From: a virus
Length of the DNA stretch: 64,000 nucleotides
IMG/VR virus record: IMGVR_UViG_3300042987_000557
Coordinates: 1 to 64,000 of that record
Reading direction: 5' to 3' (one strand)
Shown: one piece after another, positions 34,644 through 62,814 of the stretch
How positions within the stretch are numbered: position 1 is the stretch's first letter
Layout of the letters: every line of letters starts with the position of its first letter
Notes under the pieces: model-generated
Told to the model about the DNA's origin: nothing
Databases searched by the model: none
Seen by the model: the letters and a program-made list of their open reading frames with translations, nothing else
Translations under genes and position numbers: made by a program

Positions 34644-36495
34644 TTTTGAAACGTTCTATGATAAAGAATATTCTTTATCTAAGATCACAACCGAAGAGTA
34701 CGTGCGCGATCCACGCTTTGAAACCATCGGCGTTTGCGTAAAGGTGGACGACGAGCCGACTGAATGGTTTAGTGGTACGCACGAGCAGACAGCAAAGTGG
34801 TTGGCACAGTTCCCGTGGGAGGATGCGTTCGTGTTAGCCCACAACATGTTGTTCGACGGTGCGATACTTAGCTGGCGCTACAACATCAAACCCTTTGTGT
34901 ACTTGGATACGCTGTGCATGGCGCGAGCAGTGGACGGCATCGAGGCAGGTAACAGTCTGTCAAAACTGGCCGAACGTTACAACCTTGGTCAGAAAGGCAA
35001 CGAGGTAGTCCTAGCACTTGGCAAACGGCGCAAAGATTTCACATCGTACGAGCTAAGTAACTACGCTCGGTACTGTGCTAACGACGTGGACATTACCTAC
35101 AAGTTGTTCGACGTGTTCAAGGAGTCGTTCAACAAGAACGAACTAAAGGTAATCGACCTTACGTTACGCATGTTCACCATGCCAGTGCTGACCTTGGACT
35201 CTGCCTTCTTACAGAAGCACCTCGACGAAGTGATAGCGCAGAAGGAAACGCTTCTTGAAGAAGCAGGTGTCACCAAAGAAGTTCTGATGTCTAACCCAAA
35301 GTTTGCCGCGATGCTTGAGTCTTGGGGCGTTGATGTGCCGATGAAGATGAGTCCTACAACGAAGAAGATTACGTTTGCACTAGCAAAGAATGACGATGGG
35401 TTCAAAGCCTTAGCTGAGCATCCTGATCCTCGCGTCCAGTGCGCTGTTGCTGCTCGCTTAGGCACAAAATCAACTTTGGAAGAGACAAGGACGCAGAGGC
35501 TACTTGACATATCGTTTCGGGGTAGCCTCCCCGTTCCCCTTCGCTATTACGCCGCGCACACTGGTCGTTGGGGTGGCGACGACAAGGTGAACCTCCAGAA
35601 CATCCCTCGCAAATCAAAGATCAAGCAAGCCATTTGCGCCCCTCATGGGCATGTGCTTGTCGAAGCCGACTCCTCTCAAATCGAGGCGCGGATACTTGCA
35701 TGGCTAGCTGGCGAAAAATATTTGGTTAATGCGTTTGAGAAAGGTGAAGACGTATACAAGATCATGGCCGCTGCGATGTATCACTGCGATGTGTCGGAGG
35801 TGACTGAAGCCCAACGCTTCATAGGCAAAACGGTTGTGCTCGGATGTGGTTACGGCCTAGGGGCTGAGAAGTTCATGAAGCATATGAACTCGGTCGGCGT
35901 ACATATGGGCATCGATAATGCTCGGTACATCATCGGTACATACAGGGGCAGAAACGGATTCATTACTAACCTATGGGAAGAAGGACAGCGGTGCTTGGAA
36001 GCTCTTGCATCAGAAGAATTAAAAACCACTGAGTTTGGCTTTCAACCACAGGCAGTAAAGCTTATGCCGGGAGTTGGGTTTGACATGCCGAGCGGCATAC
36101 CCTTGAAATACCCCAAGATCGAAATCGATACTGAGGCTTCGTTGCGAAGGGCAGCAAAACTAGGGAGGCCGTTACAAGACACTATTCAGTACCGTTACGC
36201 AACCAAGCGTGGATACGTGAATATCTACGGCGGTAAGGTTGTGGAGAACGTCTGCCAAGCATTGGCTCGCTGTGTAATAGCACAGCAGATGCTAAAGGTT
36301 GCAGCAGTGTATCCGGTGGTCCTCACAGTTCATGACTCGATTGTTTGCATAGCACCAGAGCGTGGATGGGAAGCGGCTTGTGACTACGTGCAAGAGTGCA
36401 TGAGATGGCGACCCTCATGGGCAAGTACGCTTCCTTTGAATTGCGAAGTCAAATACGGAAAGACATATGGAACAACAGTCAAATACATCGGATAA
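34627..36495 (+). CDS. polA: Family A DNA polymerase with 3'-5' exonuclease domain
   Basis: 622 residues. Exonuclease motifs: TIDFETF (Asp6, Glu8), HNMLFDG (~72-78) and YCANDVDIT (~149-157). Polymerase motifs: A, VEADSSQIEARILAW (~345-359); B, RFIGKTVVLGCGYG (~397-410); C, LTVHDSIVCI. In motif B the position equal to E. coli Phe762 is Leu405. No 5'-3' exonuclease domain. It replicates the phage genome; adjacent VRR-NUC and Cas4-like nucleases may process ends. Confidence 0.93.
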   Translation: MILTIDFETFYDKEYSLSKITTEEYVRDPRFETIGVCVKVDDEPTEWFSGTHEQTAKWLAQFPWEDAFVLAHNMLFDGAILSWRYNIKPFVYLDTLCMARAVDGIEAGNSLSKLAERYNLGQKGNEVVLALGKRRKDFTSYELSNYARYCANDVDITYKLFDVFKESFNKNELKVIDLTLRMFTMPVLTLDSAFLQKHLDEVIAQKETLLEEAGVTKEVLMSNPKFAAMLESWGVDVPMKMSPTTKKITFALAKNDDGFKALAEHPDPRVQCAVAARLGTKSTLEETRTQRLLDISFRGSLPVPLRYYAAHTGRWGGDDKVNLQNIPRKSKIKQAICAPHGHVLVEADSSQIEARILAWLAGEKYLVNAFEKGEDVYKIMAAAMYHCDVSEVTEAQRFIGKTVVLGCGYGLGAEKFMKHMNSVGVHMGIDNARYIIGTYRGRNGFITNLWEEGQRCLEALASEELKTTEFGFQPQAVKLMPGVGFDMPSGIPLKYPKIEIDTEASLRRAAKLGRPLQDTIQYRYATKRGYVNIYGGKVVENVCQALARCVIAQQMLKVAAVYPVVLTVHDSIVCIAPERGWEAACDYVQECMRWRPSWASTLPLNCEVKYGKTYGTTVKYIG

Positions 36496-37150
36496 GTACA
36501 CATGGTCGTACAGCAGCATGTCACTGTTTCAGCAGTGCCCGCGCAAGTACTACCGGTTACGTGTCACCAAAGATATTGTTGAACCCCCGCAAGAACATTT
36601 GCTTTACGGTACGGCGGTACACAAAGCTGCTGAGGACTACATCAGTCTTGATAAGCCGCTTCATCCTGACTACGAATTTATGCGCCCACAGTTAGATGTA
36701 CTCAAGAAGCTGCCGGGGACTAAGTATTGTGAATATGAGATGGGCCTAACGAAAGAGTTTGAGCCTTGTAAATTTAACGCTCCTAACGTGTGGTTAAGAG
36801 GGATTGCTGATTTGCTCGTAGTAAACGATAACAGAGCACGTATCGTGGACTACAAAACGGGCAAGAGTCGGTTTGCCGACACTAAGCAACTTGAGCTTTT
36901 GTCGTTGCTGGTGTTCAAGCATTTCCCTTACGTCACCCACGTAAAAGCGGGGTTGGTTTTCGTGGTAGCCCACGATCTGGTAACGGCTGACTATGCACAA
37001 GAAAAGTCAGACGAATACTGGATGCGGTGGTTGCCCGAGATCGACCGATTAGAGCAGTGTTTTGCTTCCAACACATGGAACCCGAAGCAGAACTTTACCT
37101 GCAAGAAGTTTTGTCCTGTAACTGATTGTGAACATAACGGAAGGAGTTAA
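36467..37150 (+). CDS. Cas4/RecB-like PD-(D/E)XK nuclease with probable Fe-S cluster
   Basis: 227 residues. His52 (GTAVHKAAE), Asp115 (RGIADLLVV), Asp128-x-Lys130 (RIVDYKTGK) and Gln141 form the RecB-family active site. Cys24 together with Cys212, Cys216 and Cys221 (CKKFCPVTDC) match the four-cysteine Fe-S cluster of Cas4 and AddB. No CRISPR system is nearby, so a role in replication or recombination end-processing is more likely. Its start overlaps the polymerase end by 29 nt. Confidence 0.85.
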   Translation: MEQQSNTSDKYTWSYSSMSLFQQCPRKYYRLRVTKDIVEPPQEHLLYGTAVHKAAEDYISLDKPLHPDYEFMRPQLDVLKKLPGTKYCEYEMGLTKEFEPCKFNAPNVWLRGIADLLVVNDNRARIVDYKTGKSRFADTKQLELLSLLVFKHFPYVTHVKAGLVFVVAHDLVTADYAQEKSDEYWMRWLPEIDRLEQCFASNTWNPKQNFTCKKFCPVTDCEHNGRS

Positions 37151-38288: not shown

Positions 38289-39056
38289 ATGGCTACAAAG
38301 AAAGTAACAGAAGATACGATTCAAATCGTTGAGATGGAAACCCAAACGGTTACGTTCCATGTACTAGGAACTACACCGATGATCTGCAATCGTATGCCTG
38401 AGAAGGCATGGCAGCAACTGCTTCTTCCTTCCGGTCGCAAGACTGCTGCTGAGAAAGCAGGATCAATGAAGCACGATCCTTTGACTGAGTATCGCTCATC
38501 GCCATACCGTATGCCGCAAGGTGATCATGCAACTGAGTTGTCTGTGTTAGCTACGCAGTTTAAAGGTGCGCTACGCAATGCTGCACTGGATATGCCTGGA
38601 GCTAAGAAGTCACAGATTGGTCGCCTGACAACGGTTGAGAATGAACGTCTTGAGTTGTTCGGTGTTCCTAAGATCTTCTCAAGTATCACTCGGTCAGCAG
38701 ACATCAACAAGACCCCTGATGTACGCACTCGCGCCATCGTACCGAAGTGGGCATGTAAGGTTGACATCACTTATGTGCGTCCGGTTTTGAACCATACAGT
38801 TATCTCTAACCTTTTCGCTACAGCAGGTATAACGATGGGCGTAGGTGATTGGAGACCTGAGAAAGGTTCAGGTAACTACGGTCGTTGGAAGATTGTCGAT
38901 GCTGATGATTCTGACTTCTTAGAAATAATTAAGACAGGTGGCAAGGCAGCGCAACTTGAAGCACTGGAGAACCCAGAGGCTTATGACGATGACACTGAAG
39001 AGTTGCTATCGTGGTTCAACACAGAGACCAAACGTCGTGGTTTGAAAGTAGCTTAA
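38289..39056 (+). CDS. Conserved phage protein, possibly RAMP/Cas7-like fold (255 aa)
   Basis: Key segments: VTFHVLGTTPMICNRMPEKA, LSVLATQFKGALRNAALDMP, ITYVRPVLNHTVISNLFATA, then GITMGVGDWRPEKGSGNYGR. I know this pattern ('...GF+xALxxAA...IGVGEWRPEKGGxFGRFEV') from many phages and mobile elements without an assigned function. The Gly-rich end and overall strand order faintly recall RAMP/Cas7-type folds; this is speculation. It is next to a 154-aa gene that commonly accompanies it and just upstream of the pentamer-repeat tract. Confidence 0.6.
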   Translation: MATKKVTEDTIQIVEMETQTVTFHVLGTTPMICNRMPEKAWQQLLLPSGRKTAAEKAGSMKHDPLTEYRSSPYRMPQGDHATELSVLATQFKGALRNAALDMPGAKKSQIGRLTTVENERLELFGVPKIFSSITRSADINKTPDVRTRAIVPKWACKVDITYVRPVLNHTVISNLFATAGITMGVGDWRPEKGSGNYGRWKIVDADDSDFLEIIKTGGKAAQLEALENPEAYDDDTEELLSWFNTETKRRGLKVA

Positions 39057-39066
39057 GGAGATAAAC

Positions 39067-39531
39067 ATGGATAGAGCCGCAATAGCTAAAAGATTAGAGG
39101 AGATTGCGGCCCTCCACGGAGGGTCGCTTACACCAGACATCGTAGTGGCAGATGCTAAGAACCCATCAAGTCCTTTACATAGCTACTTTGACTGGAGTGT
39201 TGAGAGCGCAGCACATAAGCACTGGATTGATACCGCACGTAATCTAATTGCTTCTGTGCGCGTGATTGTAACCACAGAGAAAGTTGTTATTAAAGCACCT
39301 TTCTATCTACGTGATCCAAGCAAAAAAGGTAACGAGCAAGGCTACACCACACTTACCAAAGTACGTAGTAATAAAGATCTTTCAAGGGAAGTTATCAATA
39401 ATGAAGTTGCACTCATTGTTGGTGCGCTAAGAAGAGCAAAGAACGTAGCACAAGCCCTTGATATGGTGGATGAGATGGAAGCACTGCTTGAACAAGTCTT
39501 AGTCCTACGCAACAAGCTAGAGAAGGTTTAG
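39067..39531 (+). CDS. Conserved phage protein (154 aa)
   Basis: The N-terminus carries LHGGSLTPDIVVADAKNPSS and PLHSYFDWSVESAAHKHWID. This 'LTP..VV..A..P.SPLHS.FEW....AA..' pattern is common in phages and usually sits beside the 255-aa type above. The rest is helical (LIVGALRRAKNVAQALDMVD). Function unknown. AAGGAGA precedes the start; its stop TAG shares its last G with the repeat tract. Confidence 0.7.
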   Translation: MDRAAIAKRLEEIAALHGGSLTPDIVVADAKNPSSPLHSYFDWSVESAAHKHWIDTARNLIASVRVIVTTEKVVIKAPFYLRDPSKKGNEQGYTTLTKVRSNKDLSREVINNEVALIVGALRRAKNVAQALDMVDEMEALLEQVLVLRNKLEKV

Positions 39532-39948
39532 GCAGGCCGGGTACGGTAAGGTCAGGCTTGGTGCGGTGGGGTTCGGCAGGCAAGGCGCGGCTAGATTAAG
39601 CAAGGTGGGGTATGGCGACGTGAGGTAGGGCAGGCTCGGTTCGGTAGGTTGCCTTTGGGTATGGTTCGGCGCGGTTCGTTTTGGCAGGCAAGGATTGATC
39701 CGGCATGGACAGGCGCGGCAACGCGGGGTGCGGTGAGGTATGGTATGGCAGGCGTGGTGAGGTCGGGTGAGGTGAGGTCGGGTCGGGTTTGTTGTGGCAG
39801 GCTAGGTGAGGTCGGGTTAGTTGTTATATGTAAGGTCTTATCAGGCAGGCTAGGTAAGGTTCGGTTCGGTTTTATTCAGTGCGGTTTGTTAGGGCAGGCA
39901 CGGTGGCGTTAGGTAATACAAGGTGTGATGGGTTTTGATGAGGCAGGT
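39531..39948 (+). repeat. Punctuated pentamer tract: eight blocks of GGCA + (GGYNN)n
   Basis: The whole 418-bp gap is periodic. GGCA tetramers lie at 39531, 39575, 39629, 39683, 39747, 39796, 39844, 39893 and 39942. Between them are 8, 10, 10, 12, 9, 8 (plus 4 nt), 9 and 9 pentamers. About 52 of 75 pentamers read GGYNN, and the first after each GGCA is GGC in all eight blocks. Block 1 is perfect; order decays rightward. The + strand is G/T-rich. No convincing gene inside. Function unknown. Confidence 0.9.
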
Positions 39949-59988: not shown

Positions 59989-62814
59989 TCAAGCAGGCAT
60001 CATACGGCCCATATTGATTTCGGGCGGTTGTCTTGTTGTGCCATGTCGTGCTTTTCTAACTCGATCCATCATGGCGTAAAGTTTCTTAGACCCAGCGTTA
60101 CTGGAGCCGTTACCTAGATCTGCAACAACATCGGCAGGGATCACAAACTCTCCATCGGCAAGACGAGCCTCTTGAACACCCTCGATGGTAGCAGGCACAC
60201 TATCACTCATGCCATCCCCTGCGCCATTTATTGTGCGAGGTTCGTTAGCAGGCCCAGTGGCACCTCCAGCAACCATAGCGGCAATCTCACCGCCCCCAGC
60301 GACATTGACACTACCTAATGTACTAGCGAATAGTTGACGGTACTGTTCCTCACGTTTCTTTCTTTCATCTTCTTCAGCTTGAATCTGCATCTGTTGACGT
60401 GTAGCTTCATCCATACCACTGATAGACATCGTTGGTAAAAACGTAGTGGCTGCTGCTTGGAATGGAGTCATACCGGCTGCGGCTTTAAATGCTTCTCCTG
60501 CACCGGGGGCATTGGTGGCTAGGTTTTTAGCACCTTCAAATAAAGTCGTTCCTCTATCTGCTATGGCACTCATACCCCTTGATACTATATTTTCGGCAGC
60601 AGGTACTGCTGTTTGCGCGGCAGTTTGCCCTGCGTTTTGAAACATAATAGATTTAGCAGCGTCCCCAGCGATAGCTGGTGCAGTTTGTGTAGGAATATTT
60701 TTAGCAACTTCTCCTGCTATATCAGTAGTAAGTCCCTTAGCAACCTCGCCAGGAACAGTGCTAGTAGCCGCTGCACCTGCATCAGCAGCACCCGTTAAAC
60801 CTTTGCCTAACTGTCCTAACCCGTAGGAAGCAATACCCGTTAACAGCCCACGCTTCCAGTTAAATTTTTCGCCTGGACCCCCCATACCACCAGAGATTCC
60901 ACCGACAAGCGCACCGGCTAACGGCCCACCAAGTAACGATGCAGCAATACCCAAAATAGGGCCAGCTTTCTTAAATAACTTTCTCCAACTGAAGTACTCA
61001 GGCAAGCCAGTCTGTGGATTTATAGTCCCCGCACCACCCATCGCTTGTAGCATCTGAGCTTCTTCGGGACTGATGTGGGCTAGCATCGTGTCGCCAAACC
61101 GACCTTTCTGCGCCATTTCTTCTGCGTAGCCCTTCATGGCAATACTACCTAGCCCACGACCGACACCACCACCTTCGGCGTATTGGTATAGAGGACGAAT
61201 TCTATTACCGCGCTCATCAAACATTGTTGCCGGAGCTGTACTCTCAAACATAGAAGCTGGGAAATACTCAGCACCTGTACGACCCTGTCGCACCATCAGC
61301 ATACGTTCTGCTAACGCATCAATACCTTTATCCCTAGCCTCACGTTCAGCAGTTTCTAGTAGCGGATTGAATACGACATTTCGTGGTAATGATTCTCTGT
61401 AGCCAGCTAATACTTTTTGTACGGCTGGTGTGAACATATAGTTTTCGTCAACGTATTCTGGCAATCCAAAATCGCTCAACGAATACTTAGCCATTTCTTT
61501 AGGTGCAGTAACTTCTTTCCCTTCTGCAAATGCAATTGGCCCACCCATGTTTTTTGTTACAGGAGCGATAACTGAATTACCCGCAGCTAACTGACCAAGA
61601 TTTCCAAGATCCCGTGGAGCTTGTATCACATCAAGCGTATCAAAAGTAGTCTTTAAAGTAGGCGCAGTAGCGGTTGATACATACGACGGCAAAGTTGTAG
61701 ATGCTCCTGCAAGCATCGTAGAGCCTGGAGGTTTGTAGCCTATACTTTGTAGATAGTTAAGGTTTGCGTCTGTTAGCCCAATCGAAGCTAGCTGTGTTGG
61801 AGTTACACGGTTAGCATTTGCCCAAGCAACTTTTTGAGCATCACTAAAGTTTGCAAAATTAGGGGGGAGTGCCGTATTAATACCTACATCCAAAGCAGCC
61901 TGTAGCCCAGACTTTGTAAACGGCTGCGCCGCAATTGCGGCTCTTGCAGCAGCAAGTCCTCTTTCAGCAGCAGGTCGTGCAAGCAGTTGAGGTTGGTTAG
62001 CTTGGAAAACAGCGTTGGCTTGCGCCCTTGCCGCAAAATCTTCCATTGATATTTGAGGAACAATACGCCCTTCGTTCTTACCGATATTGTTGTAATGCCA
62101 TTGAGCATACGATTCGACGGTAGGGAAACGCGGGTCTTGAAACTGATTCTTTAACTTCTCCCACTCAGCCTGCAACCCAGGCACCATCTTCCCGTACGCC
62201 GTCCAATCAGGGACAGTGTTTGTTGTGGCCGTAGTGGTTGTAGTACCCCCTGTACCCCCTGTAGTGGTTGTAGTACCCCCTGTACCCCCTGTAGTGGTTG
62301 TAGTACCCCCTGTAGTACCCCCTGTAGTACCACCTGTAGTACCACCTGTAGTACCACCTGTAGTATCACCTGTAGTACCCCCTGTAGTACCCCCTGTAGT
62401 ACCCCCTGTAGTGGTTGTAGTACCCCCTGTAGTACCCCCTGTAGTGGTTGTAGTACCCCCTGTAGTACCCCCTGTATCCGCAGGCTCAATATACCCAGGT
62501 ATACCCTCTTGTTGAACTTGTGCGCGGACTTCAGGGGGAGAGAAATCCCTACCCGCTAATGCTGCTTGGATTGTATTAGCAGATAATTGCCCACCAAAAG
62601 CTTGTGAAATTGTTTCAGCAAGCTCAGTATTTGTTAGAAGCGGATTTCCAAGGATAGCTCTAAGTCCCGCAGCTTCTTGTAGCGTCACACCAGAACCAGA
62701 CCAATAGGCTTGTGCTGCGGCATCGGCTAACTGTTTGAGTTGCGACTGAGTATATAAAGGAGCGTCTATTGGATCACCTTCAATAGCACGTCTGTCTGTA
62801 GAAGTTATAGCCAT
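59989..62814 (-). CDS. Internal virion protein with Thr/Gly repeat linker (941 aa)
   Basis: N-terminal helical domain (~1-110), then an ~85-residue Thr-Gly-only linker (~113-197), a helical segment, the motif NMGGPIAFAEGKEV, YAEGGGVGRGLGSIAMKGYA, a hydrophobic Gly/Ala-rich region (GPILGIAASLLGGPLAGALV) and a conserved C-terminus (GMSDSVPATIEGVQEARLAD, GEFVIPADVVADLGNGSSNA, KLYAMMDRVRKARHG). I associate this end with internal or tail proteins of aquatic podoviruses. The linker DNA is a tandem repeat prone to length change. Confidence 0.65.
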   Translation of the reverse strand: MAITSTDRRAIEGDPIDAPLYTQSQLKQLADAAAQAYWSGSGVTLQEAAGLRAILGNPLLTNTELAETISQAFGGQLSANTIQAALAGRDFSPPEVRAQVQQEGIPGYIEPADTGGTTGGTTTTTGGTTGGTTTTTGGTTGGTTGGTTGDTTGGTTGGTTGGTTGGTTGGTTTTTGGTGGTTTTTGGTGGTTTTTATTNTVPDWTAYGKMVPGLQAEWEKLKNQFQDPRFPTVESYAQWHYNNIGKNEGRIVPQISMEDFAARAQANAVFQANQPQLLARPAAERGLAAARAAIAAQPFTKSGLQAALDVGINTALPPNFANFSDAQKVAWANANRVTPTQLASIGLTDANLNYLQSIGYKPPGSTMLAGASTTLPSYVSTATAPTLKTTFDTLDVIQAPRDLGNLGQLAAGNSVIAPVTKNMGGPIAFAEGKEVTAPKEMAKYSLSDFGLPEYVDENYMFTPAVQKVLAGYRESLPRNVVFNPLLETAEREARDKGIDALAERMLMVRQGRTGAEYFPASMFESTAPATMFDERGNRIRPLYQYAEGGGVGRGLGSIAMKGYAEEMAQKGRFGDTMLAHISPEEAQMLQAMGGAGTINPQTGLPEYFSWRKLFKKAGPILGIAASLLGGPLAGALVGGISGGMGGPGEKFNWKRGLLTGIASYGLGQLGKGLTGAADAGAAATSTVPGEVAKGLTTDIAGEVAKNIPTQTAPAIAGDAAKSIMFQNAGQTAAQTAVPAAENIVSRGMSAIADRGTTLFEGAKNLATNAPGAGEAFKAAAGMTPFQAAATTFLPTMSISGMDEATRQQMQIQAEEDERKKREEQYRQLFASTLGSVNVAGGGEIAAMVAGGATGPANEPRTINGAGDGMSDSVPATIEGVQEARLADGEFVIPADVVADLGNGSSNAGSKKLYAMMDRVRKARHGTTRQPPEINMGRMMPA
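62225..62477. repeat. Coding tandem repeat (GTAGTACCCCCT-type units)
   Basis: About 250 bp of 9- and 12-bp units such as GTAGTACCCCCT and GTAGTGGTT, all multiples of three, encoding Thr-Gly repeats in the leftward frame. Slippage would change linker length without frameshift. Other frames stay open only because the units lack stops. Confidence 0.9.

What the first reader, a model, noticed from the sequence alone, without database searches (positions are those of the whole stretch)
39531..39948. 418-bp 'punctuated pentamer' tract: eight blocks of GGCA plus 8-12 GGYNN units
The stretch starts on the last base of a stop codon and holds no convincing gene. Distances between GGCA marks are 44, 54, 54, 64, 49, 48, 49 and 49, that is 5n+4 in seven of eight cases. 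Roughly 52 of 75 pentamers are GGYNN, and the first is always GGC. The period of 5 is incompatible with codons. Possible meanings: (a) an array of two-tetrad G-quadruplexes (GG-N3 repeated); (b) an RNA wrapped by a ring protein with 5-nt register, as TRAP does with spaced NAG triplets; (c) an ssDNA tract for an annealing protein. All three are inference.
Basis: partly seen in the sequence, partly recalled or inferred. Interest (0 to 1): 0.9.

Follow-up and report, generated by a model that had tools for sequence, protein, structure and literature searches.

The report
Phage VIPR guide-RNA array
The odd 5-letter repeat is an array of eight guide-RNA modules of a VIPR system, a recently described phage-encoded RNA-guided DNA-silencing machinery related to the ancestors of CRISPR, and one module, kept by every relative, reads as a guide against a recombination gene of rival phages.

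Summary
It is not a G-quadruplex or ssDNA tract. It is the vrRNA array of a VIPR (Viral Interference Programmable Repeat) system, described in a 2026 preprint. The vipr gene is 38289-39056: its family profile hits the solved SUSP1 Vipr at E=1e-37, and its predicted fold matches Csm3/Cas7. A second gene, 39067-39531, is a co-conserved, fold-orphan candidate accessory protein (vap). A blind search for (GGYNN)8 returned 120 viral stretches, and 91 of them encode Vipr. Results beyond what I could read of the preprint: (1) GGCA punctuation marks one 100/100-supported Vipr clade, the one carrying this accessory gene; (2) modules are re-assorted as units among relatives, with NN conserved and GGY drifting; (3) module 6, read with the 1-nt skip rule, spells YDRYVIKL(Q/H) and matches at least 120 viral stretches at all 18 specified bases, in frame, in Sak4-like ssDNA-annealing genes (reversed control: 1 hit). 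That guide occurs in all 15 relatives. New member of a known kind.

The parts
38289..39056 (+). vipr gene, 255 aa: RAMP (Cas7/Csm3-like) RNA-binding protein
   Evidence: Profile A5 of 94 homologues (no Felixounavirus in it) hits PDB 36pp_D 'SUSP1 Vipr protein' E=9.6e-38; an HMM built without the window finds it at E=1.9e-20; AF2 pLDDT 92; the 50 Foldseek PDB matches shown are all Csm/Cmr/Cas7-type RAMP complexes, best E=2.8e-6; motif AGxxxGxGDxRPxxGRFxV; phrog_4652 of unknown function
39067..39531 (+). family B gene, 154 aa: candidate VIPR accessory protein (vap), no known fold
   Evidence: phrog_15946 of unknown function; found in 49 loci, all of which also encode Vipr; AF2 pLDDT 94, no significant PDB match by fold or sequence
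39531..39945 (+). vrRNA (guide) array: eight GGCA-delimited modules of GGYNN pentamers, closed by a ninth GGCA at 39942-39945
   Evidence: same position and pattern in 15 relatives
39531..39574 (+). module 1, NN = CG AC AA CA TT GC GG TC
39575..39628 (+). module 2, NN = AA GC TA TA AA GG AT GA GA AG
39629..39682 (+). module 3, NN = TC TC AG GC TG AT TC GC TC TT; homologue in other relatives has 11 units
   Evidence: no exact target in IMG/VR for the 11-unit form
39683..39746 (+). module 4, NN = AA TT CC AT CA GC AA GG GC GA AT AT
39747..39795 (+). module 5, NN = GT GA CG GA GA CG CG TT GT
39796..39843 (+). module 6, NN = TA GA CG TA GT AT AA CT CA (one 4-nt unit, GTAA); predicted guide against Sak4-like ssDNA-annealing genes of other phages
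   Evidence: control
39844..39892 (+). module 7, NN = TA AA TC TC TT TC GC TT AG
   Evidence: no exact target in IMG/VR
39893..39941 (+). module 8, NN = AC GG TA AA AA GT GG TT GA
   Evidence: two IMG/VR matches, both out of the wobble frame, taken as chance

Best explanation
The stretch is the guide-RNA array of a phage VIPR system. The + strand is transcribed with the vipr and accessory genes just upstream. The RNA is bound, one Vipr RAMP subunit per pentamer, with GGY held by protein and the two NN bases exposed. The NN pairs of one module read a double-stranded DNA target as NNxNNx..., skipping one target base per unit, usually the codon wobble base. Each module between two GGCA marks is one guide (about 8-12 units). 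Binding represses target genes of competing phages or prophages. Shown here: the array, the Vipr identity, the co-conserved accessory gene, module re-assortment, NN conservation, and one strong in-frame target (Sak4-like annealase). From the preprint (PMC13142463): RNA expression, complex formation, the 1-nt skip code, repression. Inferred: that this phage's array is expressed and processed, that GGCA is the boundary or processing mark, one subunit per pentamer, and that targeting Sak4 harms rivals.
For: Vipr homology to the solved SUSP1 Vipr and RAMP fold. A blind DNA-pattern scan gave 120 viral stretches; 91 encode Vipr, and every stretch with family B also has Vipr. Arrays mostly lie just downstream of same-strand ORFs, often within 20 nt. 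In 21 groups of homologous modules, variable states per column are 0.104/0.119/0.085 at GGY and 0.035/0.055 at NN (Fisher p=8e-4), as expected if NN carries the information. Module 6 read as NNxNNx has at least 120 exact IMG/VR matches, 119 of 120 spelling YDRYVIKL(Q/H) in frame with the skip base at wobble and 37 different skip strings; the protein is AAA_24 / 'Sak4-like ssDNA annealing protein'. Reversed-order control: 1 match; about 750 bacterial genomes: 0; own genome: 0 at up to 3 mismatches. The same code recurs in relatives despite different scaffold lengths.
Against: Only one of six guide codes scanned gave a convincing target (and none for the rest of the array, which was not scanned in IMG/VR). 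GGY is looser here (G 86% and 77% at the first two positions) than in SUSP1-type vrRNAs as described. No 3' tail like that of type II is visible. No transcript data for this phage. The VIPR description is a preprint, and its supplement could not be read, so the type number is unknown. The match count for module 6 is inflated by relatedness of the target genes.
Confidence: 0.95

Rival explanations
1. A tandem array of two-tetrad G-quadruplexes (GG-N3 repeated) acting on transcription or replication.
For: The strand is 44% G with GG every 5 nt.
Against: G-quadruplexes tolerate variable loops and do not need a pyrimidine after GG (general knowledge); GGY drifts while NN is kept within homologous modules; the arrays track one RAMP gene family.
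Confidence: 0.02
2. A protein-decoy or attenuator RNA wrapped by a ring protein in 5-nt register, as TRAP does, with NN as meaningless spacer.
For: Period 5, about 8-12 units per module; a RAMP oligomer is a periodic RNA-binding protein.
Against: NN is the most conserved part within homologous modules; module 6's NN string matches one protein motif in frame at least 120 times against 1 for its reversed control; the linked protein is Vipr, not TRAP.
Confidence: 0.02
3. Neutral or selfish tandem repeats made by replication slippage.
For: Repetitive, intergenic, variable in copy number between relatives.
Against: Units differ at NN from copy to copy, register is kept over divergent phages, modules are inherited as discrete units, and the arrays accompany a specific gene family.
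Confidence: 0.01

Closest known systems
VIPR systems, type II (Escherichia phage SUSP1 and Pseudomonas fulva prophage; PMC13142463, PDB 36pp)
   Same: Vipr RAMP gene, intergenic GGY/NN vrRNAs of about 9-16 units, small accessory gene, phage-borne, NN readable with a 1-nt skip at codon wobble.
   Different: Guides here stand head-to-tail separated only by a 4-nt GGCA with no visible structured 3' tail; Vipr lies in a different, strongly supported clade from the Felixounavirus Viprs; accessory protein is family B; GGY is looser.
Felixounavirus loci (SME50, ekra)
   Same: Vipr homologue next to three GGTNN tracts in an intergenic region.
   Different: Tracts are separated by longer conserved segments; no family B and no GGCA punctuation; Vipr in the other clade.
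Mycobacterium phage Mattes (Cheoctovirus) gp52-gp53 and Gordonia phage ODay gp19-gp20
   Same: Vipr plus family B plus GGCA-punctuated arrays.
   Different: GC-rich GGCNN; the array lies upstream of vipr (Mattes) or between the two genes (ODay).
Class 1 CRISPR-Cas (Csm3/Cas7 RAMPs)
   Same: Cas7-like fold; short conserved marks between variable guides resemble repeats between spacers.
   Different: No CRISPR repeats or cas effector operon found here; guide pairing is non-contiguous and stored inside pentamers.

Membership tests
VIPR system | Vipr protein (single-RRM RAMP with G-loop) encoded at the locus | tested here: met
   38289-39056; profile vs 36pp_D E=9.6e-38, RAMP fold, glycine-rich GxGDxRPxxGRF motif
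VIPR system | vrRNAs made of alternating GGY/NN motifs, about 9-16 units, in intergenic DNA by vipr | tested here: met
   Eight modules of 8-12 units, 52 of 76 units GGYNN; slightly looser and shorter than type II
VIPR system | small accessory gene (vap) | tested here: inconclusive
   Family B is co-conserved but whether it is one of vap1-6 could not be checked (supplement not readable)
VIPR system | NN code recognises DNA by the 1-nt skip rule, skip at codon wobble | tested here: met
   Module 6: at least 120 matches, 119 of 120 in wobble frame, control 1. Sequence evidence only, for one module
VIPR system | vrRNA expressed and bound by Vipr; target repression | not testable with these tools
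   needs infection or expression experiments
VIPR type II | invariant structured 3' tail after each repeat tract | tested here: not met
   Modules abut through GGCA only; no credible Rfam match; fold no better than shuffles. Vipr outside the side of the tree that holds the Felixounavirus Viprs
Class 1 CRISPR-Cas | CRISPR repeats plus multi-subunit cas operon | tested here: not met
   No CRISPR-type repeat in the tandem-repeat scan; none of the ten neighbouring proteins scanned matched a cas effector, only an exonuclease/Cas4-like PD-(D/E)XK nuclease at 36467-37150
TRAP-type attenuator | NAG triplets bound by TRAP | tested here: not met
   Unit is GGYNN and the linked protein is a RAMP

The most novel reading that the evidence does not exclude
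The family-B clade is a VIPR type with CRISPR-like arrays: GGCA acts as a minimal 'repeat' that delimits and perhaps processes guides, and phages trade whole guide modules at these marks, building changing anti-rival libraries around one universally kept guide against the Sak4-like recombinase of competing phages.
Probability: 0.45. Interest if true: 0.78.

Novelty: new member of a known kind. Interest (0 to 1): 0.6.

Why it matters
VIPR was described only in 2026 as a possible ancestor of CRISPR effectors, with a guide code unlike any other. This locus extends it to another phage lineage and gives a natural series of 15 related arrays in which guides can be followed as they are gained, lost and re-ordered, which bears on how guide libraries evolved before CRISPR. 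It also names a specific, testable natural target, and points to cultured mycobacteriophages and Gordonia phages with the same array type for experiments.

Tried and rejected
G-quadruplex, TRAP-like and ssDNA-tract readings (see rivals). Rfam search, including for the hammerhead ribozymes reported in some VIPR arrays: nothing credible at the window. RNA folding: no excess structure. Foldseek and sequence search for family B: no credible match. Target search of 89 modules against the loci in hand: matches at the shuffle level once the trivial 3-skip self-match is set aside. Exact IMG/VR scans for module 3 (11-unit form), module 7 and one relatives' module: none; module 8: two matches judged chance because they are not in the wobble frame. 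Attempt to find the host through module 6 target sites in 385 genomes of one bacterial class and 369 of another: no match. Megablast of the first 25 kb against named phages: no match, so the host is unknown. The bacterial-genome pattern scan is mostly high-GC background: only 4 of its 120 stretches encode Vipr.

Full report
OBSERVATION. The tract is exactly as described. Eight GGCA-led modules of 44, 54, 54, 64, 49, 48, 49 and 49 nt run from the last base of a stop codon (39531) to a ninth GGCA at 39942, just before the ribosome-binding site of the next gene. 52 of 76 units are GGYNN and the first unit is always GGC. The lag-5 GG signal (44) exceeds 2000 dinucleotide shuffles (mean 16.1, maximum 28). 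Nothing like it occurs elsewhere in the window.

RELATIVES. Fourteen viral contigs encode a close homologue (81-100% identical) of the upstream 154-aa protein along its whole length or nearly so, and one more carries its end. All of them bear a GGCA-punctuated tract at the same place; one of them (L002) is identical to the window there. The tracts differ in order and number of modules (about 8 to 21), yet individual modules recur nearly unchanged: 77 module families, 38 of them in two or more distinct arrays, in varying order. So modules are inherited and exchanged as units.

A WIDESPREAD CLASS. Most arrays lie just 3' of a same-strand ORF, so G is on the sense strand. The flanking ORFs fall mainly into two families. 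Family A is the window's 38289-39056; family B is 39067-39531. Family A occurs in 91 of the 120 stretches, and every locus with B also has A. No protein sequence was used to choose these stretches, so the link between array and family A is not circular.

WHAT FAMILY A IS. No informative Pfam match. A profile of 94 members without any Felixounavirus sequence hits 'SUSP1 Vipr protein' in the PDB at E=9.6e-38. The AlphaFold2 model (pLDDT 92) matches Csm3/Cas7-type RAMPs (best E=2.8e-6; the 50 matches shown are all CRISPR RAMP complexes). The preprint PMC13142463 (bioRxiv 2026.04.26.720920) describes Vipr with vrRNAs of alternating GGY/NN, in which NN pairs with DNA with one skipped target base per unit, mostly the codon wobble base, and which repress competing phages and satellites. 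The window is therefore a VIPR locus.

INDEPENDENT SUPPORT FOR THE CODE. Across unrelated modules NN is variable and GGY constant. Within groups of homologous modules the reverse holds: NN columns vary least (0.035 and 0.055 states per column) and GGY columns most (0.104, 0.119, 0.085; Fisher p=8e-4). That is expected if NN is the message and GGY a tolerant scaffold.

A TARGET. Module 6 (39796-39843), read as NNxNNx with its single 4-nt unit allowed for, is TAxGAxCGxTAxGTxATxAAxCTxCA. In 119 of 120 the site reads YDRYVIKL(Q/H) in frame, with 37 distinct strings of skipped bases. The protein is AAA_24 (E=1.7e-53) and PHROG 'Sak4-like ssDNA annealing protein'. The same dinucleotides in reverse order give 1 match; the other four codes scanned gave 0, 2, 0 and 0; about 750 bacterial genomes and the phage's own record gave none. 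The window encodes no Sak4 homologue. All the arrays compared carry this code, either as the same module family or, in L010 and L013-L015, with a different scaffold length but the same NN list; L003 differs in one terminal base. No other guide is so universal. The match covers exactly the units between the GGCA marks: the flanking target codons start with CC before and mostly GC or AC after, not CA. Caution: the target genes are related, so 120 is not 120 independent events, and reading module 6 requires one 4-nt unit, whose place was chosen from the homologous module in L010. The strength lies in the control, the reading frame and the universality of the guide.

GGCA AND THE TYPE. Four-nt junctions inside arrays are GGCA 149 times and anything else 11 times. 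They occur in 22 of 28 pattern-found loci with family B against 8 of 63 with Vipr alone (p=1.5e-9). The Vipr tree puts all 38 rows with family B, plus six without it, on one side of a 100/100 branch; Felixounavirus and the remaining rows are on the other. Mycobacterium phage Mattes and Gordonia phage ODay have the same combination. GGCA-punctuated arrays plus family B thus mark one VIPR lineage. It is probably one of the preprint's seven types, but its supplement could not be read here, so its number, and whether these are its 'staggered' arrays, stay open.

MECHANISM. Shown here: array, gene pair, homology, modular inheritance, NN conservation, one in-frame target. Known from the preprint for other members: expression, Vipr binding, 1-nt skip code, repression, enhancement by an accessory protein. 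Inferred: co-transcription from upstream genes, GGCA as guide boundary, one guide per module, repression of Sak4-like annealase genes in rival phages.

VERDICT. A real and striking feature, already explained in kind by the VIPR preprint: a new member with useful additions on array architecture, guide turnover and a natural target.

Noticed in passing
L262 2605-2856 (Mycobacterium phage Mattes, NC_051681) with gp52-gp53: A cultured mycobacteriophage genus (Cheoctovirus) carries vipr, family B and a GGCA-punctuated array, all annotated as hypothetical or left unannotated; tractable in M. smegmatis.
   Followed up: partly
L263 3629-3771 (Gordonia phage ODay): GGCA-punctuated GGYNN array between gp19 (vipr) and gp20 (family B), inside the tail-gene region.
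   Followed up: partly
L041 1995-2378: Array punctuated by a 9-nt GGCGTTCAN unit instead of GGCA, within the GGCA clade of Vipr; another spacer style.
   Followed up: no
L023 640-1197, L022 3968-4636: Arrays whose guides are separated by longer conserved, partly palindromic segments (for example GGGCCTTATTGCGAGGAATA), like the structured tails reported for type II.
   Followed up: no
L003-L016, following the family B stop codon: Doubled marks (GGCAGGCAGGG...) and extra-long or very short modules occur at some junctions, perhaps traces of module exchange.
   Followed up: no
window 62231-62476: Period-12 and period-30 tandem repeat; it is coding, a Gly-Thr-rich stretch in a 941-aa minus-strand ORF (59989-62814).
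   Followed up: yes
L169 (Aureimonas ureilytica), L183 (Fibrobacteres MAG), L198 (Patescibacteria MAG), L208 (Selenomonadales MAG): The only 4 of 120 pattern hits in bacterial genome contigs that encode Vipr; the rest look like GC-rich background.
   Followed up: partly
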